Shown here in pieces: positions 2,466 through 61,100 of a DNA stretch of 64,000 bases (position 1 is its first letter; each line of letters begins with the position of its first letter). The notes beneath the pieces are model-generated. The model had not been told where the DNA came from. It ran no database searches and saw nothing but the letters and a program-made list of their open reading frames with translations. This DNA comes from an uncultured Dokdonia sp. (lineage in GTDB: Bacteria > Bacteroidota > Bacteroidia > Flavobacteriales > Flavobacteriaceae): contig NZ_CANLNH010000004.1 in NCBI RefSeq assembly GCF_947492535.1, positions 248,001 to 312,000 on the forward strand, written 5' to 3'. The translations under genes were made by a program, and so were the position numbers.

Positions 2466-3447
2466 CTATATGCTGTTGTATTCTTTTTAATGTCTCATCT
2501 ATAGGCGTGGGTGTATACGAAAATTGCTGTATTGCTTTTTCTGAACTATATACTTCTATCCCTTGAATAGAAGCGGCACTTATACGAGTGATTTTTCGTT
2601 TGCGAGTAAATAATCCTAAAAAAGAATCTCCTAAAATAAGAATCTTAAGAAGTCCGTTAGAAAGTGATTTTTTAGAAGGTTTTTTAGAAAAACTAGTTGC
2701 CATACGATCTAAGATATCTTTATAAGAAGTATTCTCTCCTACTAGAATATAACGTTCTTTTGTTATAGAACTATGAAGACCTTGTATCATAAGATGCACA
2801 ACATCTTTTACATCTATAAATCCATTACTTCCTTTTGGGAAAAATGTCTTTTCTTTTAGGGTATGATTACATAATATACCACTACCTTTTGTGTAATCAC
2901 CTTCTCCCAAAATGATAACGGGATTAAAAATAATAGCTTCGAGCCCCTCTTGTGTGCCCCGCCAAACCTCCATTTCGGCACCGTATTTTGAAATAGCATA
3001 CACAGAATTAGCTTCATTAGGGTCCCAGATATTTTCTTCTGTAATGGGGTTGTTAGGTAATTTGCTTAACGCTGCGACAGAACTCAAATGACATAATTTC
3101 TGAACTTGATATGCGAGACATAAATTCACCACATTAGCAGTTCCTTCAGCATTGGTTTTTAGTAGTTTTTGAAAATCATAGGGGTCAAAAGAGATCAGTG
3201 CAGCGCAATGATATACATGTGTAATGTCTTTAAAAGCGACTTCGAGTGAAGGCACGTCTGTGATATCTGCCTCTACCCAATCTATTGTTTTGAATGCTGT
3301 TTCCGCTTTCGCGAAAGCAAAAAAAGCCTCCACCTCCTGTACTTTTTTAAGAGATCTGAACGTAGATCGCACGGGTTTGCTTTCTTGTGTAAGAGCAAGT
3401 AATAAATGCATTCCGACGAGTCCTGTACCTCCTGTAACTAAAATCAT
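2449..3447 (-). CDS. NAD(P)-dependent epimerase/dehydratase family protein
   Basis: Extended short-chain dehydrogenase of the dihydroflavonol-4-reductase-like group, 332 residues. It begins with the Rossmann glycine motif TGGTGLVG (residues 5-12). VYHCAALISFDP and the LSSVAAL strand follow, then the catalytic YAISK (Tyr and Lys of YxxxK) near residue 150. The substrate is unknown; related proteins reduce or epimerise sugar or lipid groups. Residues AFAKA near position 46 are encoded by a perfect copy of the genome-wide palindrome GCTTTCGCGAAAGC. The gene converges on the DUF4296 gene with a 17-bp overlap. Confidence 0.85.
   Translation of the reverse strand: MILVTGGTGLVGMHLLLALTQESKPVRSTFRSLKKVQEVEAFFAFAKAETAFKTIDWVEADITDVPSLEVAFKDITHVYHCAALISFDPYDFQKLLKTNAEGTANVVNLCLAYQVQKLCHLSSVAALSKLPNNPITEENIWDPNEANSVYAISKYGAEMEVWRGTQEGLEAIIFNPVIILGEGDYTKGSGILCNHTLKEKTFFPKGSNGFIDVKDVVHLMIQGLHSSITKERYILVGENTSYKDILDRMATSFSKKPSKKSLSNGLLKILILGDSFLGLFTRKRKITRISAASIQGIEVYSSEKAIQQFSYTPTPIDETLKRIQQHIATKNL
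3305..3318. repeat. GCTTTCGCGAAAGC palindrome, in epimerase gene
   Basis: Perfect 14-bp palindrome read on the minus strand in the frame GCT TTC GCG AAA GC, giving Ala-Phe-Ala-Lys-Ala in the epimerase. Confidence 0.9.
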
Positions 3448-3502
3448 GAGTATAAATATAATCTACTCTGCTCAAGTACCCCAATAACGCCACTTTAATT
3501 TT

Positions 3503-3510
3503 TATATTTG
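3503..3510 (+). promoter_or_regulatory. Probable -7 box (TATATTTG) of tyrS
   Basis: TATATTTG matches the Bacteroidota -7 consensus TAnnTTTG and lies 21 bp before the ATG at 3532. It contains the upstream in-frame TTG at 3508, so that TTG cannot be the start if transcription begins just downstream. No clear TTG -33 box is visible at 19-21 bp. Confidence 0.55.
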
Positions 3511-3531
3511 CATCCTCAAAAAGAAATTTCG

Positions 3532-4827: not shown

Positions 4828-4854
4828 TTAAACAGTACATTTTAGAATAAAAAC

Positions 4855-4890: not shown

Positions 4891-4909
4891 TGGTAAAAGG
4901 GGTGAAAAA

Positions 4910-10375: not shown

Positions 10376-10438
10376 AATCGTTAATTAGTTTAGTAATAAG
10401 GTGCAAAAATACAAAATGTAATAATGGTAGCTGTTTTT

Positions 10439-10452
10439 GCTTTCGCGAAAGC
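10439..10452. repeat. GCTTTCGCGAAAGC palindrome, intergenic
   Basis: Perfect copy in the divergent gap between the T9SS gene (start 10375) and the response regulator (start 10576). The rest of this 200-bp gap shows only a -7-like TATTTTTG on the minus strand (10404-10411) that may serve the T9SS gene. Confidence 0.9.
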
Positions 10453-10575
10453 GTAAATATTTAACCCATTCTTAATATTGATTTTGTCTGGGTAACGTGT
10501 GGAATAAATTACTTTAGTGATTTAATAAAGAATATATAATAGAGTATATTTATAACATCAAATTGTGATACACAC

Positions 10576-13406: not shown

Positions 13407-14081
13407 TTGGGAAGTAAAAATAAATTAAAGCGTTTTCGTGAAAACGAAACCTTCAGTAACGTTATTCAACCTACTCGTGAGGAGTTGGTGAATGGAAGTT
13501 TCCCCCTTAAAGGTAAGTGGAAAATAGACTTTTTCAAAAATAATAAGCCTATTGTTTTGGAATTAGGTTGTGGAAAAGGTGAATACTCTGTAGGATTAGC
13601 GCAACGGTATCCAGATAAAAACTTTTTGGGAATAGATATTAAAGGTGCTCGTTTTTGGAGAGGCGCCAAAACCGCATTGGAAGAAAACTTAACCAATGTA
13701 GGATTTATGCGTACACAAATAGAGCTTGTTGATTTTGCTTTCGCGAAAGCTGAAATAGCAGAAATATGGATTACCTTCCCAGATCCTCAAATTAAGTATA
13801 AACGCACTAAGCATAGAATGACTAATACAGAATTCTTGCAAAAATATAAGCAGATATTAGAACCAGAAGGAACGATTAATTTGAAGACAGATTCTGAGTT
13901 TATGCATGGGTATACACTAGGGCTTTTACATGGAGAAGGTCATGAGATATTACATGCAAATCATAATGTGTATAAGAATGAATATTCCCCCGAAGAAGTA
14001 GTGGGAATACAAACATTTTATGAAAAACAATATCTTGAAGAGGGAAAACCAATAACTTATATTAAATTTAGAGTCAAATAG
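13407..14081 (+). CDS. trmB: tRNA (guanine-N7-)-methyltransferase
   Basis: Makes m7G46 in tRNA using S-adenosylmethionine. The 224 residues include the SAM motif LELGCGKGEYSVG near residue 50, GIDIKGARFWRG, and the family motif FPDPQIKYKRTKHR near 126. The start is TTG: the N-terminal GSKNKLKRFRENETF matches the family start and no ATG or GTG is near. A perfect GCTTTCGCGAAAGC palindrome (13737-13750) encodes AFAKA within it. It probably heads an operon with the LysE and alkyltransferase-like genes. Confidence 0.95.
   Translation: MGSKNKLKRFRENETFSNVIQPTREELVNGSFPLKGKWKIDFFKNNKPIVLELGCGKGEYSVGLAQRYPDKNFLGIDIKGARFWRGAKTALEENLTNVGFMRTQIELVDFAFAKAEIAEIWITFPDPQIKYKRTKHRMTNTEFLQKYKQILEPEGTINLKTDSEFMHGYTLGLLHGEGHEILHANHNVYKNEYSPEEVVGIQTFYEKQYLEEGKPITYIKFRVK
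13737..13750. repeat. GCTTTCGCGAAAGC palindrome, in trmB
   Basis: Perfect copy, read as Ala-Phe-Ala-Lys-Ala in trmB (residues following VD). Confidence 0.9.
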
Positions 14082-15967: not shown

Positions 15968-16098
15968 ATGTCTTTTTTAAAAGAGAAGGATGAATGATAT
16001 ACTTAAAAGACGTTTTTGTTTTTGAAAAGGTTGCCTGTGTTTTGTGAAAATGTACCTGTATATGTGTTAAAGTTGGTTTTAGATGTGATGATTTTATA

Positions 16099-16178
16099 GT
16101 ACGCTTTCGCGAAAGCGTACTTGTGAGACTTGCCTGTCGGCAGCCAGATTCATGACCATCGAGAGTGCGAAACACTAG
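16099..16178. repeat. Composite mosaic repeat, family A (copy 1)
   Basis: Begins with a 22-bp perfect palindrome (16099-16120) centred on TTTCGCGAAA. The module TTGTGAGAC follows, then a degenerate CCTGCC/GGCAGG hairpin (TTGCCTGTCGGCAGCCAG), then ATTCATGACCAT and GAGAGTG. Aligns module by module with copies at 17729, 35218 and 51076. The intergenic gap 15968-16312 holds this repeat and the mrp promoter only. Confidence 0.8.
16103..16116. repeat. GCTTTCGCGAAAGC palindrome, intergenic
   Basis: Perfect copy at the left end of composite repeat 1. Confidence 0.9.
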
Positions 16179-17695: not shown

Positions 17696-17728
17696 AGATA
17701 GCCTTACTAGAGATGTGTTTGTAAAACC

Positions 17729-17792
17729 GCTTTCGCGAAATCGAACTAGTGAGATTCACGACCAAAAGGGAGAGTGTAACGATAAAGCGTAC
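17729..17792. repeat. Composite mosaic repeat, family A (copy 2, short form)
   Basis: GCTTTCGCGAAATCGAACTA, then GTGAGATTCACGACCA, GGGAGAGTG, AACG and AAAGCGTAC. It lacks the internal CCTGCC...GGCAGG palindrome that copies 1 and 3 carry between GAGA and TTCA, so it shows the empty state of that module. Confidence 0.8.
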
Positions 17793-20680: not shown

Positions 20681-21871
20681 GTGTTGACCAACTTTCTTAT
20701 AGAATTTCCTAATTTCAATTTATACAGTACACCACTTCTTATATTGGTGATTCAAGGACTTGTTTTTTCTTTTTTACTATTCGGAAAATATAAAAAAGAA
20801 AAAAGCATATCCTATCTGATTTTAGCTTTTATTCTCCTTATTACGTGTTACCATCGTACCACCTATACCATTGGATTTATGGATTGGTATGATACTTTTA
20901 GAAATACAAAGATTAATTACTACCTAATTAATTTTGGACTCATCGTTGTTCCTCTTATTTATTTTTATGTAAAAAGTATAACAGTATCAGATTTCACTTT
21001 TAAAAAACAACACCTTTGGCATTTTGTGCCAGGCATTCTCTATTTTTTAATTAAGGTAGTTATTCTTATTTATGATGCTAATCAACCAGGGTTTTCAGAA
21101 ACACAAAATGGATATTTAGTTCAGAATTTCCAATGGAAGTATGTAGATCCTTTTCAATCTGCATTTTCTTATATTCAAATGATTGTGTATATCGTTTTGA
21201 CACTGCAGTTATATGCAACCTATCGTAAAAATATCCAGCAATATTTTTCAAATACGTATACATTAGAACTTAATTGGATGCGTAACTTTTTACTGATATA
21301 TACACTATTGTTTATATATGATATTGGGCAGACGCTTGTAGATATGACCATCACAGAACTGAGTTGGATTCAGAAATGGTGGTTGCAGTTTCTAAATGCA
21401 CTTGCGATTATTTATATAGGGATAAAAGGATATATCACCGATACAGATAAGCTAAAGGGATTAGATTTTAATGCATCAACGGCTGCCACATTTAATTCAG
21501 TTTCTGTCACTAGTGAGCCTTTACTTTCAGAAGAGGTAAAGAAAAATAAACAGGTTGTTCGTGCGTATTTTGAACAAGAAAAACCCTATTTAGATCCTGA
21601 TTTAAATTTAATTACGCTTTCGCGAAAGCTTAAGATGTCCCGTTCCCAATTATCTGAAGTGATCAATGATGGGTTCGGTAAAAACTTTAACGATTTTGTG
21701 AATACCTATCGAGTAGAAGCTGTAAAGCAAATGCTGAAAGATGGGAAACAAGAGCAATTATCATTACTTGGTATTGCACTTGAGTGCGGTTTTAATAGTA
21801 AAGCTACATTTAATCGTGTTTTTAAGAAGCTTATACAAACGTCCCCTACAGAATATATTAAATCTCTATAA
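20681..21871 (+). CDS. AraC-family regulator with N-terminal membrane domain
   Basis: A 396-residue membrane-bound transcription factor. About seven hydrophobic helices fill residues 10-255. After a linker, the two-helix-turn-helix AraC domain spans about 290-395 (LITLSRKLKMSRSQLSEVIN and LGIALECGFNSKATFNRVFK). The start is GTG at 20681 or TTG at 20684, since the first ATG lies after two helices. The LSRKL motif in the first HTH is encoded by a perfect GCTTTCGCGAAAGC. The ligand and targets are unknown; the downstream DoxX operon is one candidate. Confidence 0.87.
   Translation: MLTNFLIEFPNFNLYSTPLLILVIQGLVFSFLLFGKYKKEKSISYLILAFILLITCYHRTTYTIGFMDWYDTFRNTKINYYLINFGLIVVPLIYFYVKSITVSDFTFKKQHLWHFVPGILYFLIKVVILIYDANQPGFSETQNGYLVQNFQWKYVDPFQSAFSYIQMIVYIVLTLQLYATYRKNIQQYFSNTYTLELNWMRNFLLIYTLLFIYDIGQTLVDMTITELSWIQKWWLQFLNALAIIYIGIKGYITDTDKLKGLDFNASTAATFNSVSVTSEPLLSEEVKKNKQVVRAYFEQEKPYLDPDLNLITLSRKLKMSRSQLSEVINDGFGKNFNDFVNTYRVEAVKQMLKDGKQEQLSLLGIALECGFNSKATFNRVFKKLIQTSPTEYIKSL
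21616..21629. repeat. GCTTTCGCGAAAGC palindrome, in araC-like gene
   Basis: Perfect copy read in a different frame (CTT TCG CGA AAG), giving Leu-Ser-Arg-Lys in the first DNA-binding helix region. Confidence 0.9.
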
Positions 21872-27882: not shown

Positions 27883-28671
27883 CTACATTTTTAAGTAAAA
27901 ATCTTTCACTAAGGCAATATAAGCGTCAGTATATTCATGTCTAGCATATTCTATGATAAGTTCTTTCGGGAGTACGCTTTCGCGAAAGCGTATAAAGTCG
28001 CCTTCTATATCGTGAGGAATTTGTTCCAAACGTTGAAACGCTAACATACTTCTTTTAATAGGACTCTCTAAATTTCCTTTCACATGGGTGATGCGTGTTG
28101 GGAATAAATGAGCGCTAGACGCTAATGCAATAAAGTCTTCTTCTCTATGATGCGGAATGATGACGTTGAATACTCCTGTTTCTGAAAGTAATTTGGCGAC
28201 AGCACCTATTAATAATTCGAAAGGCATTGTATCTTCAAATCGTGCCTTTTTTCTAGCTTCAGACATTGTGTTCTCTCCCTCTGGAAGAGATGCCGAAGGC
28301 AGAGAGGGTGTTTCGTAAAAAGGGGGATTGCTTATAATAAGGTCGTAAGTGTCTTCTATTTCGGTTGCAAACTCATATAAATGCGCATGATAACAAAACA
28401 ACCGATCGCCCCAGTCACTATTCTCAAAATTTTCTGTTGCCTGCTCATAAGCATCATCATCAAGTTCTAATGCGTCTATTGTTTCGGCATAGCTTCGTTG
28501 TGCCATCATCAAGGCAATAATACCAGTTCCTGTGCCTATGTCAAGAATAGATTCAGGATTATGGTCTATAGATGCCCAGGCACCTAATAAGACACCGTCG
28601 GTCCCTATTTTGGCGGCACATCGATCTTGTGCGACTGTAAATTGCTTGAATTGAAAAGGCTTTTGTGCCAT
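27883..28671 (-). CDS. trmN6: tRNA1(Val) (adenine(37)-N6)-methyltransferase
   Basis: A 262-residue SAM-dependent methyltransferase of the YfiC/TrmN6 family. The SAM motif LDIGTGTGIIALMMAQR is near residue 42, and the catalytic NPPFYE (ISNPPFYETP) near 116 identifies N6-adenine methylation. It begins 11 nt after rimM, so it probably belongs to the rpsP-rimM operon. The C-terminal RFRES is encoded by a perfect genome palindrome (27976-27989). Confidence 0.88.
   Translation of the reverse strand: MAQKPFQFKQFTVAQDRCAAKIGTDGVLLGAWASIDHNPESILDIGTGTGIIALMMAQRSYAETIDALELDDDAYEQATENFENSDWGDRLFCYHAHLYEFATEIEDTYDLIISNPPFYETPSLPSASLPEGENTMSEARKKARFEDTMPFELLIGAVAKLLSETGVFNVIIPHHREEDFIALASSAHLFPTRITHVKGNLESPIKRSMLAFQRLEQIPHDIEGDFIRFRESVLPKELIIEYARHEYTDAYIALVKDFYLKM
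27976..27989. repeat. GCTTTCGCGAAAGC palindrome, in trmN6
   Basis: Perfect copy read in the third frame (C GCT TTC as CGC TTT CGC GAA AGC), giving Arg-Phe-Arg-Glu-Ser. Confidence 0.9.
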
Positions 28672-35218: not shown

Positions 35219-35300
35219 CACGCTTTACCGTTTCACTCTCCCCCTGGTCGTGAATCTGCCTGCCGGCAGGCAGGTCTCGCAAGCTCGATTTCGCGAAAGC
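35218..35300. repeat. Composite mosaic repeat, family A (copy 3, longest)
   Basis: On the minus strand: GCTTTCGCGAAATCGAGCTT, GCGAGA, then a 20-bp CCTGCCTGCCGGCAGGCAGA palindrome, TTCACGACCA, GGGAGAGTG, AACGGTAAAGCGTGC. It abuts the last base of the dnaE stop codon. The remaining intergenic DNA to 35449 shows nothing else. Confidence 0.85.
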
Positions 35301-35449
35301 AGATATCTTTTTTAACTCGTTGTGCATTTTGGTGAATAGTTGGTATTAGTACACGTTATCTTCATTCTTTTCCTCAAATCCTAAAGGATGGAATAAAGAT
35401 TTCTTTAATACCTTTTAAGGTGTGTAATCCATAGTTAACGTAAAACAAA

Positions 35450-36999: not shown

Positions 37000-37036
37000 C
37001 TTCGACAGGCTCAGTATACCATTTCGCGAAAGCAAA
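37000..37036. repeat. Mosaic repeat fragment (CTCAGTATA + TTTCGCGAAAGC modules)
   Basis: CTACTTCGACAGGCTCAGTA followed by TACCATTTCGCGAAAGC. The first module recurs in degenerate form at 51076-51095 before composite copy 4. Confidence 0.6.
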
Positions 37037-37103
37037 TATAGTCGTTAGCCAATTCTAAAGAGTGAAATTCATATATTTAACAGCTACTTGAAAAATATAT
37101 GAT

Positions 37104-39133: not shown

Positions 39134-39151
39134 ATATATAATACTAAGTGC

Positions 39152-39165
39152 GCTTTCGCGAAAGC
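39152..39165. repeat. GCTTTCGCGAAAGC palindrome, intergenic
   Basis: Perfect copy (as GCGCTTTCGCGAAAGCG) between the GH85 terminator and the end of the frameshifted lipoprotein gene. Confidence 0.9.
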
Positions 39166-39186
39166 GTATCCTGTATCATCACTTTA

Positions 39187-41811: not shown

Positions 41812-42468
41812 CTATTGTACCGTAACAGCTTCTCGTAAATAACGTCTAAAAGGAAGCATCTCTAAATAGACTTCTATACATTTTTCCTGATAGTTAGGAT
41901 CTAGTATTTGCTTTCGCGAAAGCGTCATTTCAATACCAAATGTTTTATGTCTCAATAATTCAATATGCGGATGCTCTTTTGAAAACCCTTTTGGAGCTGT
42001 CTTTAAAGGATCATCATGATAGAGTGTCCCAAACATTTTTTTGAAGGATGGCTTTTCAAGTATAGCTAAAAGTTCTTCTCCATTATAATCTATAGCATCT
42101 CGAATACTTCGTAATACTGATTTTTCAGGACGCCAAAAACCACCCGCGAGTAGATTGTGCTTCAGTCCTATTTCTATATAAAAATCGCCTTGCTTGGTCA
42201 GTTGATCTAATCCAGCAGCAAAATGATCTTTGTAAATAGGTTTATTAGGCGCAAACATCAGATTGTTATTAATTCTATTGATTCCCTTTTTTCCTGGGGT
42301 ATCAAAATAATCTGGATCTACTGTCGCTAGTTTGCTGTTAAGCTCATCTAGCCAACTCACAAAAAAAGTACGTACCGCCTTATATTCTTTTCGGTTGAGA
42401 TCCATCCATTCCTTAGAATTGTTTTGCTGTAAGCGTTCTAAGAAATCAAATAATTCTGGGAAACCCAT
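41812..42468 (-). CDS. DUF2461 family protein
   Basis: A 218-residue cytoplasmic protein with the DUF2461 opening LFDFLERLQQNNSKEWMDLN and the mid-segment INRINNNLMFAPNKPIYKDH, then GFWRPEKSVLRSIRDAI. The function is unknown. MTLSRKQIL near residue 180 is encoded by a perfect palindrome copy (41910-41923). It starts 10 nt after the XRE-S24 regulator, so the two may be cotranscribed. Confidence 0.85.
   Translation of the reverse strand: MGFPELFDFLERLQQNNSKEWMDLNRKEYKAVRTFFVSWLDELNSKLATVDPDYFDTPGKKGINRINNNLMFAPNKPIYKDHFAAGLDQLTKQGDFYIEIGLKHNLLAGGFWRPEKSVLRSIRDAIDYNGEELLAILEKPSFKKMFGTLYHDDPLKTAPKGFSKEHPHIELLRHKTFGIEMTLSRKQILDPNYQEKCIEVYLEMLPFRRYLREAVTVQ
41910..41923. repeat. GCTTTCGCGAAAGC palindrome, in DUF2461 gene
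   Basis: Perfect copy, read as Leu-Ser-Arg-Lys on the minus strand. Confidence 0.9.
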
Positions 42469-44967: not shown

Positions 44968-45113
44968 GTGACTCATGACTAAAGGGAATCAGGGATCACG
45001 ACGTTTTATTCTTAGTTATGGGTTTTGAAAAAAGATATTAAGGAGCGAAGAATAAGATTCCCTCCTTTGAAGGAATTACATGGACTATGTGAGGTGATTG
45101 AGTGATTTTCGCT

Positions 45114-45631
45114 TTTCGCGAAAATAATATCGAATACAAATAGAGTAACACTCTAATGACGGAGTAATACTCTATTTTAGTGTATTGTAAGCAAACTTTC
45201 TGTATTTAAAAAGCTCCTTCCCTTGGAGAGGGAAGGTGGCTGTATCGAGGTAACGAGACACAGACGGAAGGAAGAGAATGTTTATAAATAACACACCCCT
45301 TAGTCCCCTCTTTCTAGAGGGGAAACTCATATGTTTATCTTTTGGCAAATGATCCTGTATACGCTTTCGCGAAAGCGTACAAAAGAGTATTCGTTTTTTA
45401 AGTCCTAAGTCTTGAGTGTTAAAATACGAAAGTGACTTCATACGTCATTCTGAATTTATTTCAGAATCTCATCAAATTAAGCGCAAATTAGTGAGAAGCT
45501 GAAACAAGTTCAGCTTGACCAAAGAATATTTTTTTGATGATTAGTACTCGTAATATTATATCATTATACCGTAAGAATAATTTTTAAGCAGTATACGCTT
45601 TTGCGAAAGCGTACAAAAGAGTATTCGTTTT
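45114..45631. repeat. Palindrome-rich intergenic region with 35-bp direct repeat
   Basis: The 750 bp between fabD and the isochorismatase-like gene has no convincing gene. It holds a degenerate palindrome (GCTTTTCGCGAAA, 45114-45126) and a perfect one (45363-45376). The block TACGCTTT-GCGAAAGCGTAC + AAAAGAGTATTCGTTTTT occurs twice, at about 45361-45398 and 45596-45631, differing mainly by one C to T. The A/T-rich remainder shows nothing I can name. Confidence 0.7.
45363..45376. repeat. GCTTTCGCGAAAGC palindrome, intergenic
   Basis: Perfect copy at the start of the first 35-bp direct repeat; the second repeat has a T in place of the central C. Confidence 0.9.
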
Positions 45632-46943: not shown

Positions 46944-47426
46944 CTAACGCTTCTTCCACGTCTCATACGTAAACCCAAATTTATGCCTGTCATCTACATC
47001 GTGAAACACACTTTCTTGTAATTCCCAAATAGCGGTATCTATTTTTGGAAAGAACGCATCGGCTTCAAATTCACTGTGAACGCGGGTGAGTTCGATATGG
47101 GTAGCAAAGTCGAGACCAATCGTATAAATTTCTCCACCACCAATAATGTATGCGTTTGAGTCATCTTTCGCGAAAGCGAGCGCATCTTCCATAGAATGTA
47201 CCACTACAGCGCCTTCGGCTTTATAATCGGTATTACGGGTGATGACTACATGTGTACGATTAGGTAAGGGTTTTGGAAACGATTCCCATGTTTTACGTCC
47301 CATAATGATATGGTGTCCCGTAGTCAAGGTTTTAAAACGTTTAAAATCATCGGGTAAGTGCCATACAAGGTCATTGTCTTTTCCTAAGGCGTCATTTTCT
47401 GCCGCAGCAGCGATCATTGTTATCAT
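46944..47426 (-). CDS. folA: Dihydrofolate reductase
   Basis: A 160-residue enzyme reducing dihydrofolate with NADPH. The opening IAAAAENDALGKDNDLVWHL, the active-site Asp in HLPDDFKRFK, the GRKTWESFPKPLPNR NADPH loop and IIGGGEIYTIGL are all in order. The start overlaps the 2TM gene by 4 nt, so the two are coupled. A near-copy of the palindrome (47164-47176) encodes AFAKD. Confidence 0.96.
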   Translation of the reverse strand: MITMIAAAAENDALGKDNDLVWHLPDDFKRFKTLTTGHHIIMGRKTWESFPKPLPNRTHVVITRNTDYKAEGAVVVHSMEDALAFAKDDSNAYIIGGGEIYTIGLDFATHIELTRVHSEFEADAFFPKIDTAIWELQESVFHDVDDRHKFGFTYETWKKR

Positions 47427-47913: not shown

Positions 47914-48984
47914 ATGACAGCATTTAAAAAATATTTCCCTATCACAAAACAATGTACGTATCTAAATACACCCGCTTCGGGTTTGTTGCCTGAACCAGTA
48001 TTGGAATATAGACAAGAACATGATTTAGATTTTTTTGTGATGGGAAGTGCGATTAAAGATAATCGAGGTCCTGCACTCACAGCAGTACGTGAGAAAGTAG
48101 GAACCTTATTTTCTTGTGCTCCTAACCGAGTGGCATTGGTGCCTAACTTTTCGTACGGATTTAATACACTTTTAGAAGGTGTGCCAACGCCTAAAAAAGT
48201 ATTGTTATTGGAGAACGATTATCCTTCGGTAAATTGGCCGTTTGAGTCGCGTGATTTTGAGATTGTATATGCGCACATAGATGGTGATTTGGAGAAAAAT
48301 ATTGTCTCCGCTTTCGCGAAAGCGCAGCCTGATATATTTGCATTTTCTGTCGTACAATACATCAACGGAATCAAAATAGACTTTGACTTTCTCAAACAGT
48401 TGAAAGCTACTTATACTGACACCTTATTTTTTGCCGATGCAACGCAGTATTTTGGAACGGAAGCTTTTGATTTTGATACATCGGCTATTGATGTGATGGG
48501 AGGAAGCTGTTATAAATGGATGAATGCAGGCTATGGGAATGGGATTTTCCTTATTAAAGAATCGGTAGCAGAAAAGGTATTTCCAAAAACGACAGGATTC
48601 AATTCTTTACAGGGGAAATATAAAGCACAAGAAGGGAGCTTTTTAGGACGTTTTGAACCAGGACATCAAGATACCTTAAACTACGGAAGTCTAGGGGTTG
48701 CGATAGATCTTATTAATGAATTTGGAATCGATACCATTGCACAACAAATACAGACACTTTCTAAAAAAGCAAAGGAAGCTTTTATTGAACGAGGTTTATT
48801 GGAAGAAGCTGTTGTACAACGAACGGCACATTCTTCCATCTTTAATTTAAAAGGAGATGAGGCTCTTCTAAAACGTCTTGAGTCTCAGAATATCGTAAGT
48901 ATTTTACGTGGTAATGGGTTGCGCGTTGGGTTTCATTATTTCAATACAGAAGACGATTTACAGCAATTATTGGAGGTTTTGTAG
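47914..48984 (+). CDS. Class V aminotransferase / cysteine desulfurase-like enzyme
   Basis: A 356-residue PLP enzyme of fold type I, class V. The PLP Lys lies in MGGSCYKWMNAGYGNG near residue 199 and the cofactor Asp in FFADATQYFG near 172. FEPGHQDTLNYGSL is like the substrate loop of the group. The usual desulfurase Cys loop is not evident, so it may be an aminotransferase or kynureninase-like enzyme. AFAKAQ near 134 is encoded by a palindrome copy. It is divergent from the 2TM-folA pair. Confidence 0.82.
   Translation: MTAFKKYFPITKQCTYLNTPASGLLPEPVLEYRQEHDLDFFVMGSAIKDNRGPALTAVREKVGTLFSCAPNRVALVPNFSYGFNTLLEGVPTPKKVLLLENDYPSVNWPFESRDFEIVYAHIDGDLEKNIVSAFAKAQPDIFAFSVVQYINGIKIDFDFLKQLKATYTDTLFFADATQYFGTEAFDFDTSAIDVMGGSCYKWMNAGYGNGIFLIKESVAEKVFPKTTGFNSLQGKYKAQEGSFLGRFEPGHQDTLNYGSLGVAIDLINEFGIDTIAQQIQTLSKKAKEAFIERGLLEEAVVQRTAHSSIFNLKGDEALLKRLESQNIVSILRGNGLRVGFHYFNTEDDLQQLLEVL
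48310..48323. repeat. GCTTTCGCGAAAGC palindrome, in aminotransferase gene
   Basis: Perfect copy, read as Ala-Phe-Ala-Lys-Ala. Confidence 0.9.
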
Positions 48985-49834: not shown

Positions 49835-50938
49835 TTATCCTAATATCTTAGTTTGCCTGCGATAAAAAGCATCTTGCTGTCGCTTCATAATTTCTTTGGC
49901 CATCTTTTTCTTATAGCTATAAAGCTCTTCCTCATTGGCAATATCAGTATAGATACGATCATTTAAAATATGATCTGTTTCTGTTAAGATTTTACGTTGT
50001 GCTGCTTTTTGTGCGCTCCATGCTTTTATGGTGGCTTCGTGATCGGCGAGTTTTATATCGTATTCTCCCATAGGGGAGATCAATTTTGAAAATATAGGCG
50101 CTGTTTCGATCGCTAGAAATAATAGAAATATGAATAGGGATGGAAGCCAAGGTAATTCTTTCATGGCGTCTATACGTGCCATGAGTCCGTCAAAATTATT
50201 AATGATAGGCTGGCTCGTGCTTACGGCTGTATTGAACTCATCTCTAAGGCGTGTTTTTTCCGCTTCCGCGAAAGCGATCTTATCAGCACTGGAAGCTTTA
50301 AGTGCGGTAAGTTCTTCCAAGGCAGCATCGTGTTTATCACGCTTTTCTTGATAGACGGGACCCTTGCCCAAAAGTTCGGTGCCTGCCGTGCCTTCTGCTT
50401 CGGCAATATAGATTTCATAGAGGTTATTGACCTCTGTTTCTTTGGTTGCAATCTCGTCTTTAAGACTTGTTATTTCTCCATCAAGTTTATTGATTTCTGG
50501 AGTATACGCAGCTAGGATTTCGCCTTGATTCTGAACGGTGTAATCGTTCTTTTGGCTTAGCATCACCCGATCTATTTCTTTTTCAAAAATCTTAAGTTCC
50601 AGAGGTTTTGAAATTACAATAGCAATAATTACCGCTAGAATAAGACGTGGTACTGCCATGCCAAATTCTCTCCACCAATTATCTCTTTTTTTGAGTGTAG
50701 AGACAATAAAACGATCTAAATTAAAAATAACAAAGCCCCAAAGAACTCCAAAAAGAATGGCTCTATATACATTGTCAAAAATAGTGTATAATGCATAGGT
50801 TGCTGCGATAGCTGCTAGAACAGCTGTAAAAAATACGGTGGCGCCTATGCCTGCATATTTATTTTTCTCCCCACGAGAACAGGTGTCTAGCACATCTCTG
50901 TCTGCTCCAGAACAGAGAATGAAAAATTGCTGTATCAT
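49835..50938 (-). CDS. DUF4407 membrane protein
   Basis: A 367-residue protein with the DUF4407 layout: short N-terminal part with ILCSGADRDVLDTCSRGEKN, two adjacent transmembrane helices (about 32-54 and 58-78), a third near 100-118, a long charged coiled coil (about 130-255, rich in Glu, Lys and Ala), and a fourth helix near 270-288 before a cytoplasmic tail (KKMAKEIMKRQQDAFYRR). The function is unknown. The sequence near FAEAEK is a one-mismatch palindrome copy (50264-50277). Confidence 0.85.
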   Translation of the reverse strand: MIQQFFILCSGADRDVLDTCSRGEKNKYAGIGATVFFTAVLAAIAATYALYTIFDNVYRAILFGVLWGFVIFNLDRFIVSTLKKRDNWWREFGMAVPRLILAVIIAIVISKPLELKIFEKEIDRVMLSQKNDYTVQNQGEILAAYTPEINKLDGEITSLKDEIATKETEVNNLYEIYIAEAEGTAGTELLGKGPVYQEKRDKHDAALEELTALKASSADKIAFAEAEKTRLRDEFNTAVSTSQPIINNFDGLMARIDAMKELPWLPSLFIFLLFLAIETAPIFSKLISPMGEYDIKLADHEATIKAWSAQKAAQRKILTETDHILNDRIYTDIANEEELYSYKKKMAKEIMKRQQDAFYRRQTKILG

Positions 50939-51242: not shown

Positions 51243-52892
51243 TTGAAACGCTCCATTCATTGGTATTTATGTTTTTTCTTACTCTTTCTAGGAGGAGTTG
51301 CTGTCTATCTATTGCACCAAAATAATGTAGAGAAAGTTAAGATTTCTAATAAACAGCAATTAGCTTACATACATAATCGTGCTGTAAATCAATTTTCTAG
51401 TAGTATACAGAATCTAGCAGGACTTGTAGCAGGTATGAAATCATATGTTAATATGTCTGAGGAGATGCCGAGTCAGCATCAATTTCAGAAGTTTGTACAA
51501 AGTCAGCTAAATGATATAAATAGCAAAGATTCTATCGTTATTTCAGTGATAGATACATCACATATATTTAGGCAAGCATTTACTCGGTATGAAAATGATC
51601 CAGCAAATTTAATAGGTAGTTCTGTAAGAGATTTTCGTAGTGAAGAAAAAATAAAAGCGTTAGATACTTTAATGGAAACTGATGATCTTACGATGTTTCC
51701 GCCTATAAATCTAAGAGAGGGTTGGTTAGGAATACCTATAAATTTTAGAATAAAACGCCATGGTATTGTAGAAGGATATGGAGCTCCTATTCTAAATTTT
51801 GCTACCATTATGTCTAGTATTTATGATGATGATGCGGTGACTAAAGATTTTGTCTTTAAGTTTTCTACAGAGCATGGGCATGAGTTTGATCGTACACGAT
51901 CATATAATGGGACAGACGTATATACAGAGGAAGTAGATACAGAGTTTTATAAAAACTTTGATGTTCCAGAAGATGCTTTTATCTCTACAACAAAAGAATA
52001 TTTTGGTTTTGAGATAACCATAGCAACAGCGTATAAAGAATTGCCACTTCAGGGAAAACGTTTCAGAAATATTTTGTTATTGTATTATGGGCTTCTGATT
52101 TTAGTGCTATTCATTATTACGTGGCAATTAGATAGATATCGAAAATTAAACAACAGATTAGAAATTGCAAATACAGAGATTGCAAGTCAAAATGAAGAAT
52201 TACAAGACTTGAATCAAACAAAAAACAGGTTTTTTACCATGATAAGTCATGATGTAAAACAACCATTACAATCGGTGGAAGGGTTATTGGGGTTATTGCA
52301 GAATGAAAAAACAAATGATCCTTCTATCAATTCTCTTTTTAAGGAGATTAGAAAGGCTACAAGAAATACAGTTGACTTATTGAATAACTTATTACGTTGG
52401 GCACTTTCGCAAACAGGAGAACTTGCTTATGATCCAGTTACGTTTAATATGACAACAGTTATTCAAAAAACAATTGCATTGGTAGATCAACAGGCACTGG
52501 CAAAAAAGATTACGATTGTTCAAAATTTAGATGATACCATTCGTTTTTATGGAGATGTAGATATGATCCGAACGGTTGTGCGTAATTTAACGTCTAATGC
52601 TATAAAGTATACAGATATAGGTGGGGAGATTGTTATCAATTCGTACCTTCAAGATGATAAAATTCATATTTCTATAAAAGATAATGGGATTGGGATGAAT
52701 CCAGAACTCGCTTCTTCCTTGTTCCAATTAGGAGAGATGGTAAGTAGAGAAGGAACAAGTGGGGAAACAGGTACAGGTCTTGGTTTAATACTCTGTAAAG
52801 AATTTATTGAGAAGCATCATGGAGATATACAAATATCAAGCATGCCTGATGAAGGAACTACATTTACGATTATATTACCTGTGAGTGCATAA
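51243..52892 (+). CDS. CHASE-like sensor histidine kinase
   Basis: A 549-residue membrane kinase. One transmembrane helix (about 4-22) is followed by a periplasmic sensor (about 25-275) resembling a CHASE/PDC domain (FTRYENDPANLIGSSVRDF, PINLREGWLGIPINFRIK). A second helix is at about 278-297, then a coiled coil and the HisKA box FFTMISHDVKQPL (His near 338). The ATPase domain has NLTSNAIKYTD, DNGIGMN and GTGLGLILCKEF. The start is TTG at 51243, directly before the anchor helix. No regulator gene is adjacent, so it is an orphan. Confidence 0.88.
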   Translation: MKRSIHWYLCFFLLFLGGVAVYLLHQNNVEKVKISNKQQLAYIHNRAVNQFSSSIQNLAGLVAGMKSYVNMSEEMPSQHQFQKFVQSQLNDINSKDSIVISVIDTSHIFRQAFTRYENDPANLIGSSVRDFRSEEKIKALDTLMETDDLTMFPPINLREGWLGIPINFRIKRHGIVEGYGAPILNFATIMSSIYDDDAVTKDFVFKFSTEHGHEFDRTRSYNGTDVYTEEVDTEFYKNFDVPEDAFISTTKEYFGFEITIATAYKELPLQGKRFRNILLLYYGLLILVLFIITWQLDRYRKLNNRLEIANTEIASQNEELQDLNQTKNRFFTMISHDVKQPLQSVEGLLGLLQNEKTNDPSINSLFKEIRKATRNTVDLLNNLLRWALSQTGELAYDPVTFNMTTVIQKTIALVDQQALAKKITIVQNLDDTIRFYGDVDMIRTVVRNLTSNAIKYTDIGGEIVINSYLQDDKIHISIKDNGIGMNPELASSLFQLGEMVSREGTSGETGTGLGLILCKEFIEKHHGDIQISSMPDEGTTFTIILPVSA

Positions 52893-52893
52893 C

Positions 52894-52917
52894 TATACGC
52901 TTTCGCGAAAGCGTATA
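52894..52917. repeat. 24-bp perfect palindrome containing GCTTTCGCGAAAGC
   Basis: Extends the 14-mer to 12 bp on each arm (TATACGCTTTCG and its complement). It starts 2 nt after the kinase stop and may double as a transcription hairpin. Confidence 0.9.
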
Positions 52918-53087
52918 AAGAAACCATTACTTTAAGAATGTATTTATCTGTTCATTACTCTAATTTTCTAGTGAAATTTTTAGTTTTTACCTCAATCCTA
53001 AAGGAAGAACTAAAAATTTCGTCGATATTCCCTTTAGGGTTAGGGAAGAAATCAATGGAATTACTCAAAATGTACAACAAGTTGTAT

Positions 53088-53617: not shown

Positions 53618-53620
53618 GGT

Positions 53621-56273: not shown

Positions 56274-57983
56274 TTATTTTTTTACGAAATGCAGGTTTTG
56301 AACACGCCCAGCAGAAGTTCTAAATGATTGCTGATCTTTTGCGAAATCAAATGTTATAAATCCAAAGACACTAAATACGTCTTTCATAATTGGTTCAACC
56401 GAAGAAAAACTTTCTCCATTTACGTATAAAGTTAATTGGTTATTTTCATTTTTGAAGGTGTAAGTCACATCAAGTTCTTTGCTATAATAATCACCTTCAT
56501 AGCGTTGTATCTGTTCTGGTGTAAGTTGTGTAACAGGTTCGTATTTTTGAAAATTAGAAACTCCTTGTCCTGGAATATCTAATATAAAACTTGAAGGTTT
56601 GTTTGGATTGTCTATGGTAAGTTTTATAGGAATATTAGGGCCTATCCATCTAAACGTATTTTTTGAGATAGGTTCCATTTTTGTGATTCTTCCGTTTCCA
56701 CGATCATATACGAGTGTATCGTTCACTAAGGTTAGGTTTCTACTTATTTTTGAATCTGCACCCCAATAGGAACCTTCTAGTTTTTTAAGATCGGCTGTTG
56801 GGATTTTTATGGAGTTTGCTTTCGCGAAAGCAGAATTAGAAACAGCAGCATCTTCAGCATGAGTAGATGTCTCAATAGGGTCTAAAAATAGGTCTGTTAC
56901 TTTAGAAGCAAGGTCATCAGGATTTGCATCACCTCGATTTGCAAGAACAACAACGGTAAAATGTTTATCAGGAAATTGAAATTTTTGTGCACGAAATCCC
57001 ACAAAGGCACCACCATGACTTATGATTTTATGACCATCATATAAACCCACTTCAAGACCTGAAGCATACTCATTGGTGGTTCCGTCATTAAGTATTGTTG
57101 TGGTTGTCATCGTCTTCCAGAAATTCTGAGTAAGAACGGTAGAGTTATAATAGGCATCGTCCCATTTCTTTACATCTTCTATAGTTGTAAAGATCCCTCC
57201 ATCACCTATCATATTAAGCGTGGTCATACTAATTTGGAACCCTCCATCTTGTGTAGGAGAATATCCTGAAGCACGGTTTTTTACAATCGCTGTATAATCA
57301 TTATGAAAATGCGTATTATTCATTCCTAAAGGTTTGAAAATCTCTTTCTGGGCATAATCTGCCATAGATGTTCCTGTTACTTTCTGAACAATTTGGCCAA
57401 GTAGCCAGTACCCAGAATTACTATATAAATGCTCATCTCCAGGCTTAAAATTAAGCTCTTCTTGGTTGATGAGCCATTTCATAACATCTTGGTCTGTATA
57501 AAAATCTTCATCACCTAAGCCGCTTAGCGATGCAAGTGTTAGATAATCACGTATGCCACTGGTATGATTAAGGAGGTGTCGTACGGTGATTGTTTTTGCA
57601 TAGCTAGGAAATGCAGGCAAAAAGGTATCTAATGTTGCGTCTAAAGATAGTTTTCCTTGTTGAGCAAGTAATACAATACAAGCTGCTGTAAATTGTTTTG
57701 ACGTAGAGGCAATTCTAAATACAGAGGTTGATGAGATAGGGATGTCATATTCTAAATTAGCATATCCATATCCTTTTGCATAGATGATTTCTCCATCTTT
57801 AAAAATGCCTAAAGCTGCTCCTGGATGATCTGCTTTGTCAGTATCTGCAAATACAGCATCTACTTGTGCAGCAAGTTCTGGAGTAATTTTAATGTGCGTA
57901 GGTGGAGTTTTGATTTGTCCTGAGACCGCTTTCGCGAAAGCGAATACAAGAAAAACAGAAAGAAAGAGTGATTTAAATTTCAT
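56274..57983 (-). CDS. Exported class C beta-lactamase-like serine hydrolase
   Basis: A 569-residue serine hydrolase of the penicillin-binding/beta-lactamase C (Pfam Beta-lactamase) group. Signal peptide 1-22. The nucleophile motif is STSK in RIASTSKQFTAAC near residue 93, the second is YSNSGYW (YxN) near 185, the third is HGG in ISHGGAFVGF near 315. A C-terminal beta domain (about 395-569) follows, as in esterase EstB- and D-aminopeptidase-like members. It may cleave peptidoglycan peptides, D-amino peptides or esters. Two palindrome copies encode AFAKA, one inside the signal peptide. Confidence 0.88.
   Translation of the reverse strand: MKFKSLFLSVFLVFAFAKAVSGQIKTPPTHIKITPELAAQVDAVFADTDKADHPGAALGIFKDGEIIYAKGYGYANLEYDIPISSTSVFRIASTSKQFTAACIVLLAQQGKLSLDATLDTFLPAFPSYAKTITVRHLLNHTSGIRDYLTLASLSGLGDEDFYTDQDVMKWLINQEELNFKPGDEHLYSNSGYWLLGQIVQKVTGTSMADYAQKEIFKPLGMNNTHFHNDYTAIVKNRASGYSPTQDGGFQISMTTLNMIGDGGIFTTIEDVKKWDDAYYNSTVLTQNFWKTMTTTTILNDGTTNEYASGLEVGLYDGHKIISHGGAFVGFRAQKFQFPDKHFTVVVLANRGDANPDDLASKVTDLFLDPIETSTHAEDAAVSNSAFAKANSIKIPTADLKKLEGSYWGADSKISRNLTLVNDTLVYDRGNGRITKMEPISKNTFRWIGPNIPIKLTIDNPNKPSSFILDIPGQGVSNFQKYEPVTQLTPEQIQRYEGDYYSKELDVTYTFKNENNQLTLYVNGESFSSVEPIMKDVFSVFGFITFDFAKDQQSFRTSAGRVQNLHFVKK
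56818..56831. repeat. GCTTTCGCGAAAGC palindrome, in serine hydrolase (copy 1)
   Basis: Perfect copy read as Ala-Phe-Ala-Lys-Ala in the linker before the C-terminal domain. Confidence 0.9.
57928..57941. repeat. GCTTTCGCGAAAGC palindrome, in serine hydrolase (copy 2)
   Basis: Perfect copy read as Ala-Phe-Ala-Lys-Ala near the signal-peptide cleavage region. Confidence 0.9.
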
Positions 57984-58103
57984 GATGAATGATGTTACGT
58001 TTGATAGCGATTAAACTCAATAAGATGATTGGTCTTATTATAGAAACTTCCTTCTGTAAATATAGAAAAGGAAAATTTTATCTATTTGTAAAGATATATA
58101 AAA

Positions 58104-58132
58104 AGAGAAGCTCACTAGTAGTGAACTTCTCT
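58104..58132 (-). terminator. Terminator of the blaI-blaR operon
   Basis: AGAGAAG-C-TCACTA / TAGTGA-A-CTTCTCT stem, then CTTTTTATA on the minus strand, 27 nt beyond the blaR stop. Confidence 0.75.
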
Positions 58133-58158
58133 GGTATGCTTTTTTATGGAATTATAGC

Positions 58159-61100
58159 TTAAATGTCTGCTAAAAGGATGGTTATTTCTTTCTCATTTTC
58201 AGCAAGTCTTCTTCCTGTGACAATAGTGGGTCTCGCTAATAATAATTTTTCGCCTTCTGCTACAGATAATTCTTTCCCATTATAACGAAATTTTCTGGTT
58301 TTTTTCTTTAATCTTTCATAGTCACTTGCATAGATGTTATTGTCTATGCCTGAATCTAAATTATACTGTATTTCTTTATCGGTAAGCTTATATAATGTAG
58401 CCATAAATATGTTTTGATACGTTACTTCATCCTTAATAACTTGATCTTTTATACCATACTGATGTGTGCTCAAATAATCCAACGCTTCTTGTGTAGATAA
58501 AGCCTTTCCTTGATAGAAAAATTTAGTGTCTCTAGCAGATATAGGACCTCTTATTTCTATAGGAATTGTATCACCAGATTTTATTGCTGCCATTTTCTGA
58601 CCTGAGTTAGGAGTCGCTGTTTTAACTTTTACAGGAGCAGGTGGCGGTGGTGGAGGAAGTGCAGGATAGGGCTCAGCATTTTTCTTTTGCGTTTTTGTCA
58701 TTCTGCTATAAATCTCATACATAAAAGCCACCTCCGTTTTTAGTATTTCCCCATTAGGATTTTTACCATACTTCTTTGCAAGTTTATTATAAACGCTAAT
58801 GTCTTTTTTAGAGACAGGTTTTTTGCTTTGTTTTTGAGTTTCTACGACAATAGGTTTTGCAGAAATATAAGTTTTAGGAGCATTTGTGTAAGGATGTCTT
58901 GTCTGTACATTAAGATTTTCATTTGCTTTTACAAGACTCACCGCTTTTTCAAAAGTTACCTGTTTGTCTTCATAATAAAACACGCCACCTATATCATTCA
59001 TGCTTTTTAGATGGTCTTCTACACTTGGCGGTGGTGGCGGTGGCGGTAATTGTGCTTCAGGAGCTCCTGGTGCTGGTGGTGGCGGTGGAGGTGGTGGCAC
59101 TAAATCCATCCCTCCATTGGCTTTTGAAAAATTGGTTTTTAAGAATTCTTCATTTAGTTTTTTAATAAAACCTTTAGCTGGATTTTTAACAAGTGTAGAA
59201 GGAAATGCTTCTGCATAATCTGTTGCTGACCAATCTCTTGTAATGGCATCAATATCGCTACGTAGTGTTGCTAGAGACGAAGGCTTTCCGTTTACACGAA
59301 CAGTGTTCTTTCTTATTTCAATAACGAGTCCTTTCTCTCCATTTCTTTCGGCGCCTTCTACAAACTCTTTAGCATAGTTTTGCTTTGTTTGGTTATACAT
59401 AGCTTCAAATGCCTCTTTTTCAATATTTTGTTTTTGTGAATTTCCTTCTTGATTTTTTTCCAAAAATTTTTCTAGATATTCTTTATGCCCTTCTGGATAT
59501 CCTCCTTTTTCTCTCCAATAGGTGTTTGTCATTAGATTTACTTGTACATCATACTTCCCATAGTCTATAGTATTTTTCTCTATAGTGCTTTCTGTAAAAT
59601 AAGGGATATCATCTGGTTGATATGCAGTTAACACTTCGTTGCTAACTTTTACTCCGTTTATCCATATGCCATATTGATTTGTGTCTAACCATCTTTTAAG
59701 ATCTTGCTTTGTTGGGTGTTTCTCTTTTAAAGAGTTTTCAAGGGTAGTGTTTGGGAAAATATTACCCATATACACTTGTACTTCTTTAACACCGTATTCA
59801 TAAAGAACGTTATGTAGCATGTCTACTTGATCTTGTTGCTCTGGTTTTGGTTCTGAAATTGTGGCACTAATAAGCTGTTGTCTTTCTTCTTTTGTATTAT
59901 TTGTGTTAAAGCTCTCCAGTACTGTCATTAACGTAGCATTTGTTGCTGGAATATCATTGATTGTATAATTATCATTATCTATAATTTCAATATTTAGATA
60001 ATTTACATCCTCATTTGTGGTATGGGTTTTATACACAGAATGGTTTTCAATACGTTTAAGTTCAGTGCCATCTTGCATCGTAAGTTTACCGTTGTCAAAT
60101 GTAAATGTGTGCCAATCATTACCTATTGTAAATTCCATTCCATTGTCAACAAGATTTGGATAATAGCGTGTACTTTTGTTTGTAGATGTATTAATAACAT
60201 CACAGGTCGGACCTCCATTTTTGGTGATAAAATGATACTTGGTTTCACCATCTGGTGTTGACCAAATACCATCAATACGATAACTTACGGTGTCTTCTGG
60301 CGGCGTAAAATAAGTGCTGTCACCTAATTTTAAAAATCCATTATCTGCAATAGATAACTCCCATAATTCGCTATCAGGTAAATTACCAGATGGTAAAAAA
60401 TAATTTCCATCCTTAACTGTGATAGGGGCTTTTACAACTTTCTGATCCCACCAGAGTGTTCCATCCTCTTCATAGATAAATACGTCTTGATTTTCATTAG
60501 CATGGTCTATCCAATGTCCCTCAATAGCAAGATCGTTATTTGGTTGTGCAATAATCCCTTGATTAAAGACCAATACACAGCCTACAATAATGGGAATGAG
60601 TAGTAGCGCACTTATTGCGAGTCGCTTTCGATTAAATGATTGTGATAACATAAGAATTCGTTTTTTTGTTGATGAATAATTAAATGGACTCTCAAGGGTA
60701 GTGTGATGAGCACTACTGGCATAGTTTAAGAGTATATGTTGGTATTGATAAATGTCGTGTTCTTTTTGAATTGCCCCTTGGTCTGCTAGGAATTCATGAT
60801 TCAATGTGATAGATTTTTTAGTCATCCAAAACAACGGATTAAACCAAAATACCACTTGTAAAAATTCTATAAATAAGATATCTAAAGAATGCTTTTGACG
60901 TACGTGTGTAGCTTCATGCGCAATTACTTCTGTTGGTATTTCTTTGTTTTCATACCGCTTTCGCGAAAGAAAAATATACTTCAAGAACGAGTGTGGAATA
61001 ATAGACTGTTGTAAGAGCGCTAACGTAAAATGTCTTCGGTCTAGGGTTTCTGCCGTTGTGATTTTTCGCTTTAAGCGAATTAAATTTAATAGAAAACGTC

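What the first reader, a model, noticed from the sequence alone, without database searches (positions are those of the whole stretch)
3305..60969. Highly iterated palindrome GCTTTCGCGAAAGC, 14 exact copies in 64 kb
Exact copies start at 3305, 10439, 13737, 16103, 21616, 27976, 32230, 39152, 41910, 45363, 48310, 52899, 56818 and 57928; near copies at 17729, 35287, 45114, 47164, 50264 and 60957. A random 14-mer should occur about 0.0002 times in this length. Nine exact copies lie inside genes, in three frames (AFAKA five times, LSRK three, RFRES once), so the DNA rather than the protein is what is kept. The pattern recalls HIP1 of cyanobacteria. Possible roles: nucleoid-protein or segregation site, methylation target, uptake signal. 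Some copies extend to 22-24 bp.
Basis: partly seen in the sequence, partly recalled or inferred. Interest (0 to 1): 0.8.

Follow-up and report, generated by a model that had tools for sequence, protein, structure and literature searches.

The report
Dokdonia's evenly spaced palindromic DNA site
A marine bacterium and its relatives carry hundreds of copies of one long symmetrical DNA word, evenly spaced and strongly kept even inside genes, which looks like the docking site of an unknown chromosome-wide protein system.

Summary
Real and striking. All 14 copies are present; the genome holds 827, reversed control 0. The genus is Dokdonia. All 17 congeners sampled carry 369-905; two other genera (g210, sister to Dokdonia; g11, distant) carry 408-664; every other family genome sampled has 19 or fewer. 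In three of these the copies cluster on island-like stretches. The unit exceeds 14 bp: near-invariant TTTCGCGAAA core, GCGTA arms, and strand-asymmetric flanks (G-poor, A every third base), about 50 bp, alike in non-coding DNA, all codon frames and g11. In dnaE it arose by substitution, not insertion. Between species the core is kept in 74-92% of aligned sites; control 10-mers 10-43%. Spacing is more even than random. Five methyltransferase families searched give no shared driver, unlike cyanobacterial HIP1. Best reading: binding site of an unidentified DNA-binding system that maintains the chromosome. The binder was not found; my paper searches found no description.

The parts
3287..3336 (.). 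site 1: exact 14-mer 3305-3318 with +-20 bp flank; inside ORF 2449-3447 (-), AFAKA frame
   Evidence: flank extent
10421..10470 (.). site 2: exact 14-mer 10439-10452; intergenic
13719..13768 (.). site 3: exact 14-mer 13737-13750; ORF 13407-14081 (+), AFAKA
16085..16134 (.). site 4: exact 14-mer 16103-16116; intergenic by the heuristic, extended palindrome GTACGC...GCGTAC
17711..17760 (.). near copy 17729-17742 (1 mismatch, in one arm); intergenic
21598..21647 (.). site 5: exact 14-mer 21616-21629; ORF 20681-21871 (+) with AraC-type HTH, LSRK
27958..28007 (.). site 6: exact 14-mer 27976-27989; ORF 27883-28671 (-), RFRES, close to the C-terminus
32212..32261 (.). site 7: exact 14-mer 32230-32243 inside dnaE (30833-35218 +), LSRK; present in all 12 Dokdonia compared, in G230 and in G433 (g11)
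35269..35318 (.). near copy 35287-35300 (1 mismatch); intergenic
37002..37051 (.). near copy 37020-37033 (2 mismatches, both in one arm); intergenic
39134..39183 (.). site 8: exact 14-mer 39152-39165; intergenic
41892..41941 (.). site 9: exact 14-mer 41910-41923; DUF2461 ORF 41812-42468 (-), LSRK
45094..45143 (.). core-only copy TTTCGCGAAA 45114-45123, both arms diverged; intergenic
45345..45394 (.). site 10: exact 14-mer 45363-45376; intergenic or in a doubtful 89-aa ORF
45597..45610 (.). near copy with one core change (GCTTTTGCGAAAGC)
47146..47195 (.). near copy 47164-47177 (1 mismatch); ORF 46944-47426 (-), AFAK
48292..48341 (.). site 11: exact 14-mer 48310-48323; class V aminotransferase-like ORF 47914-48984 (+), AFAKA
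50262..50275 (.). near copy with one core change (GCTTCCGCGAAAGC)
52881..52930 (.). site 12: exact 14-mer 52899-52912; intergenic, TATACGC...GCGTATA
56800..56849 (.). site 13: exact 14-mer 56818-56831; PF00144 (Beta-lactamase family) ORF 56274-57983 (-), AFAKA
57910..57959 (.). site 14: exact 14-mer 57928-57941; same ORF 56274-57983 (-), AFAKA
60939..60988 (.). near copy 60957-60970 (1 mismatch); ORF 58159-61422 (-), LSRK

Best explanation
The palindrome is the centre of an about 50-bp binding site for a sequence-specific, two-fold symmetric DNA-binding system that acts along the whole chromosome of Dokdonia and two other flavobacterial genera. SHOWN: the site is specific in sequence, about 50 bp long, kept at DNA level in all frames and between genes, gained in place in dnaE, spaced more evenly than random at about one per 3-6 kb (no empty stretch among 20 sampled round the G016 chromosome), carried by phage-like contigs and mobile islands, and visibly decaying in islands that sit in motif-poor hosts. 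INFERRED: a dimeric protein recognises the core, and the strand-asymmetric, three-base-periodic flanks are contacted by further subunits loaded outward on one strand. INFERRED: the system serves chromosome maintenance (folding, segregation or repair), so that every few kilobases need one site and a second one close by brings nothing. The protein is not identified.
For: Symmetric core and arms: of 118 TTCGCGAA in 464 kb, 116 lie in TTTCGCGAAA; of 13 single-mismatch copies 11 deviate in the outer two bases of an arm. Flank footprint: G 7.5% at +6..+20 against 15% background, A 55% in phase against 36% off phase in non-ORF Dokdonia sites (224 half-sites); 5.8% against 14%, and 70% against 42%, in g11 (52 half-sites); all outside 5000 bootstraps; same trend in three codon frames. 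Conservation: core kept in 231 of 281 aligned site pairs, per species pair 74-92%, control 10-mers 10-43%. Even spacing: CV 0.55-0.64 in four 120-kb pieces, P 0.0014 or less; 20 stretches of G016 hold 5-9 sites each, variance/mean 0.21, P 9e-5; 11 stretches of G281 (g11) hold 4-7 each, variance/mean 0.12. Similar density in convergent, divergent and codirectional gaps. Phage-like contigs L175 and L191 carry 3 core sites each, some in head-protease-like, terminase and portal genes. Host dependence: at flank identity under 0.82, 29 of 61 unkept island sites have 3 or fewer mismatches, against 5 of 40 in Dokdonia.
Against: No binder was found and I have no binding, ChIP or knock-out data. One lead, an extra ParB-type protein, was negative. 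By 20-kb counts the window's own genome is not significantly even (variance/mean 0.65, P 0.13), though its gap distribution on one contig is. G230 has a weaker, partly degenerate version with only about twofold intergenic enrichment. Lytic Nonlabens phage P12024S has no copy in 35.7 kb (host motif status unknown). The site pairs counted are not independent. Island sites in motif-poor hosts are still kept 90 of 151 times (control 8%), so constraint is not confined to motif-rich hosts unless islands pass through them.
Confidence: 0.5

Rival explanations
1. Self-recognition or DNA-uptake sequence, like the uptake signals of Haemophilus and Neisseria: DNA with the site is preferentially taken up, and recombination spreads the site.
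For: Even spacing, many copies inside ORFs, excess between genes and lineage-specific spread are also stated for uptake sequences (passages of PMC1939737). The motif is carried on island-like stretches.
Against: Those uptake sequences are said not to be palindromes and to evolve gradually; here the site is a palindrome and the mismatch load shows little excess beyond 2-3 mismatches in the G000 and G016 samples. Sites lie in phage structural genes. Competence genes were not examined.
Confidence: 0.18
2. HIP1-type by-product of methylation: an orphan DNA methyltransferase recognises the centre and methyl-directed mismatch repair ratchets neighbours into the palindrome.
For: Over-represented palindrome, invariant centre and deviation at the ends resemble HIP1 (PMC4390886).
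Against: G006 (757 copies), G009 (808) and G281 (664) have no over-cut-off hit to PF01555, PF00145 or PF02086. G230 has one PF01555 hit, a family without over-cut-off hits in the ten Dokdonia searched, no PF02384, and for PF07669 only a 24-bit hit in a 313-aa ORF that I read as HemK-like. PF02384 is present in the other 8 of 9 and PF07669 in 9 of 9 carriers searched, so a Dokdonia-only enzyme of these classes is not excluded. TCGCGA outside the core is not enriched. Other methyltransferase families were not searched.
Confidence: 0.12
3. Chi-like site read by the double-strand-break repair enzyme, palindromic so that it works in both directions; after it RecA loads on one strand in steps of three bases.
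For: Strand-asymmetric, three-base-periodic flanks in both outward directions, presence in phage-like contigs and regular spacing fit a repair signal.
Against: Known Chi sites are short and asymmetric (recalled); the repair genes were not compared.
Confidence: 0.1
4. Transcription signal: terminator or operator.
For: About 5-12 times denser between genes than within in G000 and G016; palindromic. In G016 convergent gaps are somewhat denser (2.5 per kb, 12 sites) than divergent ones (1.7 per kb, 16 sites); not tested for significance.
Against: 70 of 116 core sites in the G000 sample and 76 of 142 in the G016 sample lie in ORFs of at least 100 aa; in G000 the three kinds of gap have 0.9-1.0 per kb. 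The strand-specific flank on both sides fits no terminator.
Confidence: 0.03
5. Mobile or inserted palindromic element (REP- or Rickettsia-palindrome-like).
For: Recurrent extended palindromes between genes; some unkept sites align with gaps.
Against: In dnaE three sites align without any gap, in codon alignment, to homologues lacking them; the flanks match a graded consensus and not a unit with sharp ends.
Confidence: 0.02

Closest known systems
HIP1 (GCGATCGC) and alternate HIPs of cyanobacteria (Elhai 2015, PMC4390886)
   Same: Massively over-represented palindrome across the chromosome, centre invariant, deviations at the ends
   Different: 10-14 bp core with an about 50-bp footprint instead of 8 bp; about one per 3-6 kb instead of about one per kb; Bacteroidota; no methyltransferase family shared by the carriers among those searched; strand-asymmetric flanks
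DNA uptake sequences of Pasteurellaceae and Neisseriaceae (PMC1939737, passages)
   Same: Hundreds of copies, even spacing, in and between genes, lineage-specific
   Different: Here a palindrome, nearly all-or-none, also in phage structural genes
Noc/ParB-type and other chromosome-organising palindromes
   Same: 14-bp palindromic site class spread over the chromosome (recalled)
   Different: Far more copies (recalled comparison) and no extra ParB-type HTH in carriers
DnaA-trio of bacterial origins (PMC6669920, one passage)
   Same: Three-base repeat read on one strand
   Different: An element of the replication origin; here hundreds of sites over the chromosome, both directions, only an analogy

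Membership tests
HIP (highly iterated palindrome) with orphan methyltransferase | palindrome over-represented genome-wide | tested here: met
   827 copies, reversed control 0; 83 in 464 kb against 0.0006 expected
HIP (highly iterated palindrome) with orphan methyltransferase | deviations concentrated at the ends, centre invariant | tested here: met
   11 of 13 single mismatches in the outer two bases; 19 of 25 two-mismatch copies have both in the outer two bases of one arm
HIP (highly iterated palindrome) with orphan methyltransferase | a cognate methyltransferase in the genomes that carry it | tested here: not met
   no family of PF01555, PF00145, PF02086, PF02384 has over-cut-off hits in all carriers searched; PF07669 does, but G230 only by a 24-bit hit in a 313-aa ORF read as HemK-like; other families not searched, and different enzymes in different genera are not excluded
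DNA uptake sequence | even spacing and presence in ORFs | tested here: met
DNA uptake sequence | non-palindromic, gradual mismatch load | tested here: not met
   perfect palindrome; counts at 4-6 mismatches near expectation, at 3 mismatches 34 against 8 (G000) and 14 against 9 (G016)
DNA uptake sequence | preferential uptake of DNA that carries it | not testable with these tools
   needs an experiment
REP / Rickettsia palindromic element | present as an insertion relative to homologues | tested here: not met
   gap-free dnaE codon alignments at three sites
ParB/Noc binding site | extra ParB-type HTH protein in carriers | tested here: not met
   each of the 9 carriers searched has exactly one PF17762 hit; the 8 others have 1-3
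intrinsic terminator | bias to convergent gaps | tested here: not met
   G000 0.9-1.0 per kb in all three kinds of gap; G016 2.5 convergent, 2.0 codirectional, 1.7 divergent (no significance test)
Chi site | effect on the recombination nuclease | not testable with these tools
   needs an experiment

The most novel reading that the evidence does not exclude
A previously undescribed chromosome-wide nucleoprotein system: a dimer binds the palindromic core every few kilobases and loads a filament outward in both directions that reads one strand in three-base steps. The system, or the obligation to carry its sites, arose twice in Flavobacteriaceae, is shared by their phages and mobile islands, and has been strong enough to change amino acids in the replicative polymerase.
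Probability: 0.15. Interest if true: 0.92.

Novelty: new variant of a known kind. Interest (0 to 1): 0.78.

Why it matters
Highly iterated palindromes are known mainly from cyanobacteria (recalled), and their purpose is unsettled. This one is longer, restricted to a few genera that can be compared, and not tied to a methyltransferase family shared by the genomes tested. Its footprint is detailed enough to guide a pull-down in culturable Dokdonia. If a binder is found, it would give bacteria a new kind of genome-wide address system, a marker for horizontal transfer out of these hosts (the metal-gene islands), and a clean case of DNA-level selection shaping protein sequence.

Tried and rejected
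Insertion element: rejected from dnaE codon alignments; two further gene sites lie at alignment ends and say nothing, and blastn put gaps into one comparison of a dnaE site. Methyltransferase driver: five families searched, none a convincing common one. Noc-like ParB: rejected. Other genera having their own palindrome: none evident in G031 (100 kb), G018 (70 kb), G034 (80 kb), G026 (80 kb), G184 (20 kb). RNA hairpin: flank pairs are hardly more complementary than expected, except at +6 and +7. Named phages and plasmids with the 30-bp consensus: only weak hits (E 2 to 8), none flavobacterial. Determinant encoded on the mobile island: 20 of 90 ORFs of the G116 stretch scanned, no obvious candidate; a 914-aa N6_Mtase-like and a weak HTH/RepL-like protein are present. 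I first took the carrier genera for three independent lineages from dnaE identities; the quick tree of 43 rows groups g210 with Dokdonia (SH-aLRT 94), so two changes of state are needed. Paper searches: no paper on this motif in the listings (two returned nothing; one showed 20 of 56, 61 showed 10 of 31); (sequence strings) I saw only the listing of 10 papers, whose titles are unrelated. Papers seen: PMC4390886 abstract, section 3.4 part 1 and passages; PMC1939737, PMC13151707 and PMC6669920 passages only; all others listing only.
Full report
OBSERVATION. The whole genome (4.86 Mb, 73 contigs) has 827 copies and none of the reversed control. In a 464-kb sample (window plus 20 stretches of 20 kb) 83 exact copies stand against 0.0006 expected from dinucleotides, and the 10-bp core TTTCGCGAAA occurs 116 times against 0.47. 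No other 10-, 12- or 14-bp palindrome comes close.

THE SITE IS LONGER THAN 14 BP. Of 133 TCGCGA in the sample, 116 are inside TTTCGCGAAA. Single-mismatch copies are few (13), and 11 of these deviate in the outer two bases; of 25 two-mismatch copies 19 have both mismatches in one arm's outer two bases. Outside the core the arms read GCGTA. Beyond them, on the strand running outward, G is avoided from +6 to +20 and A recurs at +6, +9, +12 and +15 (369 Dokdonia sites). In strictly non-ORF sites mean G is 7.5% against 15.0% background, and A is 55% in phase against 36% off phase, outside 5000 bootstraps; g11 gives 5.8% against 14.0%, and 70% against 42%. The same tendency is seen in all three codon frames, so it belongs to the DNA.

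DISTRIBUTION. All 17 congeners sampled have 369-905 copies. Of 397 family genomes (drawn evenly from a larger group), besides the genus, three of g11 (578, 664, 609) and one of g210 (408) are rich; all others have 19 or fewer. Of 395 phylum genomes only the window's own is rich; the next has 6. A contig of the same length names the genus as Dokdonia: D. pacifica NZ_FZNY01000001.1, 1,616,484 bp, matches G011:C21. Of 80 named dnaE loci, the 2 Dokdonia loci carry the core and 78 (1.2 Mb) do not. A quick dnaE tree of 43 rows (LG+G4, unrooted) puts g210 beside Dokdonia, Leeuwenhoekiella next (its unnamed relative G184 has 9 copies), and g11 far away; two changes of state are needed.

ISLANDS AND PHAGES. 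In three genomes otherwise without the motif, the copies cluster: G116 16 of 16 in 78 kb, G326 18 of 19 on two contigs, G091 12 of 17 on one contig and 4 on another. Pieces from G118, G127, G254 and G376 carry metal genes (RND pump, multicopper oxidase, metal P-type ATPases), and ORF comparison shows shared ORFs among the hosts. That these stretches are mobile is inferred from this sharing and from a resolvase-family gene at one end. Phage-like contigs with several copies exist: L175 (portal, head protease-like, major head) and L191 (sheath, terminase, portal), three core sites each; their hosts are not known.

HOW SITES ARISE AND ARE KEPT. dnaE (window 30833-35218) has three sites among 21 genomes, all gap-free in codon alignment. 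Site 7 is in 12 of 12 Dokdonia, in G230 and in G433 of g11, but not in G027 or G281 of g11, so it was gained more than once or lost. Where it is absent the protein reads for instance LAKKH or FARKH instead of LSRKH. The 14-mer has 0 variable columns in 12 Dokdonia while 1298 of 1459 third positions vary, and the longest invariant run (17 columns) is the motif. Across 120-kb syntenic pieces of four species the core is kept in 231 of 281 aligned site pairs; per pair 46/55, 59/64, 28/38, 42/53, 28/35 and 28/36, against control 10-mers of 43, 37, 10, 18, 12 and 10%. Sites that could not be aligned (178 site-pair trials) are not counted. Of the 50 unkept pairs, 40 differ at 4 or more of 14 positions and 10 at 1-3; some of the former are gapped, mostly where the surroundings align poorly. 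In islands in other hosts, 29 of 61 unkept sites show 3 or fewer mismatches, against 5 of 40 in Dokdonia at matched flank identity; cores kept 90 of 151 against 111 of 151, controls 8 and 10% (pairs not independent).

SPACING AND PLACEMENT. On contig C1 99 listed exact sites have gap CV 0.71 and one gap under 1 kb against 15 expected. Four 120-kb pieces give CV 0.55-0.64. Twenty stretches round the G016 chromosome hold 5-9 sites each, without a visible gradient. For the window's genome the same count statistic is not significant (P 0.13). Density per kb is 0.17 in ORFs and 0.9-1.0 between genes in G000, 0.21 and 1.7-2.5 in G016, similar across gap types. G281 behaves alike (57 exact, 60 core in 220 kb, 4-7 per 20 kb); G230 is weaker and partly degenerate (18 exact, 30 core in 220 kb).

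MECHANISM. Two-fold symmetry, an invariant core, a footprint with distinct flanks, purifying selection in every frame, and one site per few kilobases point to a chromosome-wide DNA-binding system. The strand asymmetry and the three-base period suggest that something is read on one strand outward from the core; the DnaA-trio is an analogy for such reading (passage of PMC6669920), not evidence of kinship. That a protein does this, and that the role is chromosome maintenance, is inference. Methylation is disfavoured because, among five families, none is a convincing common one; uptake and a Chi-like role are not excluded.

LIMITS. Genes are longest-ORF heuristics. Samples cover about a tenth of G000 and about a sixth of G016. 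The determinant was not found, and g11 and g210 are unnamed. HemK, REP, Noc and Chi comparisons rest on recall.

Noticed in passing
G116:C3:32331-110016, G326:C5:177799-239843, G091:C6, L070, L072, L073, L074: Island-like stretches with metal-resistance genes in several flavobacterial genera carry the motif at host-like density; a pair of sites 933 bp apart (in an OEP efflux gene in L070) recurs in G118, G127, G254, G141, G116, G326 and G200.
   Followed up: partly
L034:2217, 3108, 4505: Three intergenic sites within 2.3 kb share the long context GGGTTTTTCTTTTCGCGAAAGCGTGA, a local repeat or a specialised set.
   Followed up: no
window:17729, window:35287, L037:12610, L041:1413, L042:19884, L044:5832: A sub-family of intergenic sites with one altered arm (GATTTCGCGAAAGC or GCTTTCGCGAAATC), perhaps regulatory variants.
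   Followed up: no
G230 (L341-L350): The relative sister to Dokdonia has a sparser, more degenerate form of the site with only about twofold intergenic enrichment, as if the system were decaying or different.
   Followed up: partly
L175, L191, L141, L110, L124: Viral contigs with two or three copies each, possibly phages of motif-rich hosts; the motif could serve as a host-prediction signal.
   Followed up: partly
G018 (L063, L081-L083): Two copies of GTTCCACGTGGAAC in 70 kb, a parS-like palindrome (recalled likeness).
   Followed up: no
window:37104-39071: Glycosyl hydrolase family 85 protein with a Por secretion tail signal.
   Followed up: no
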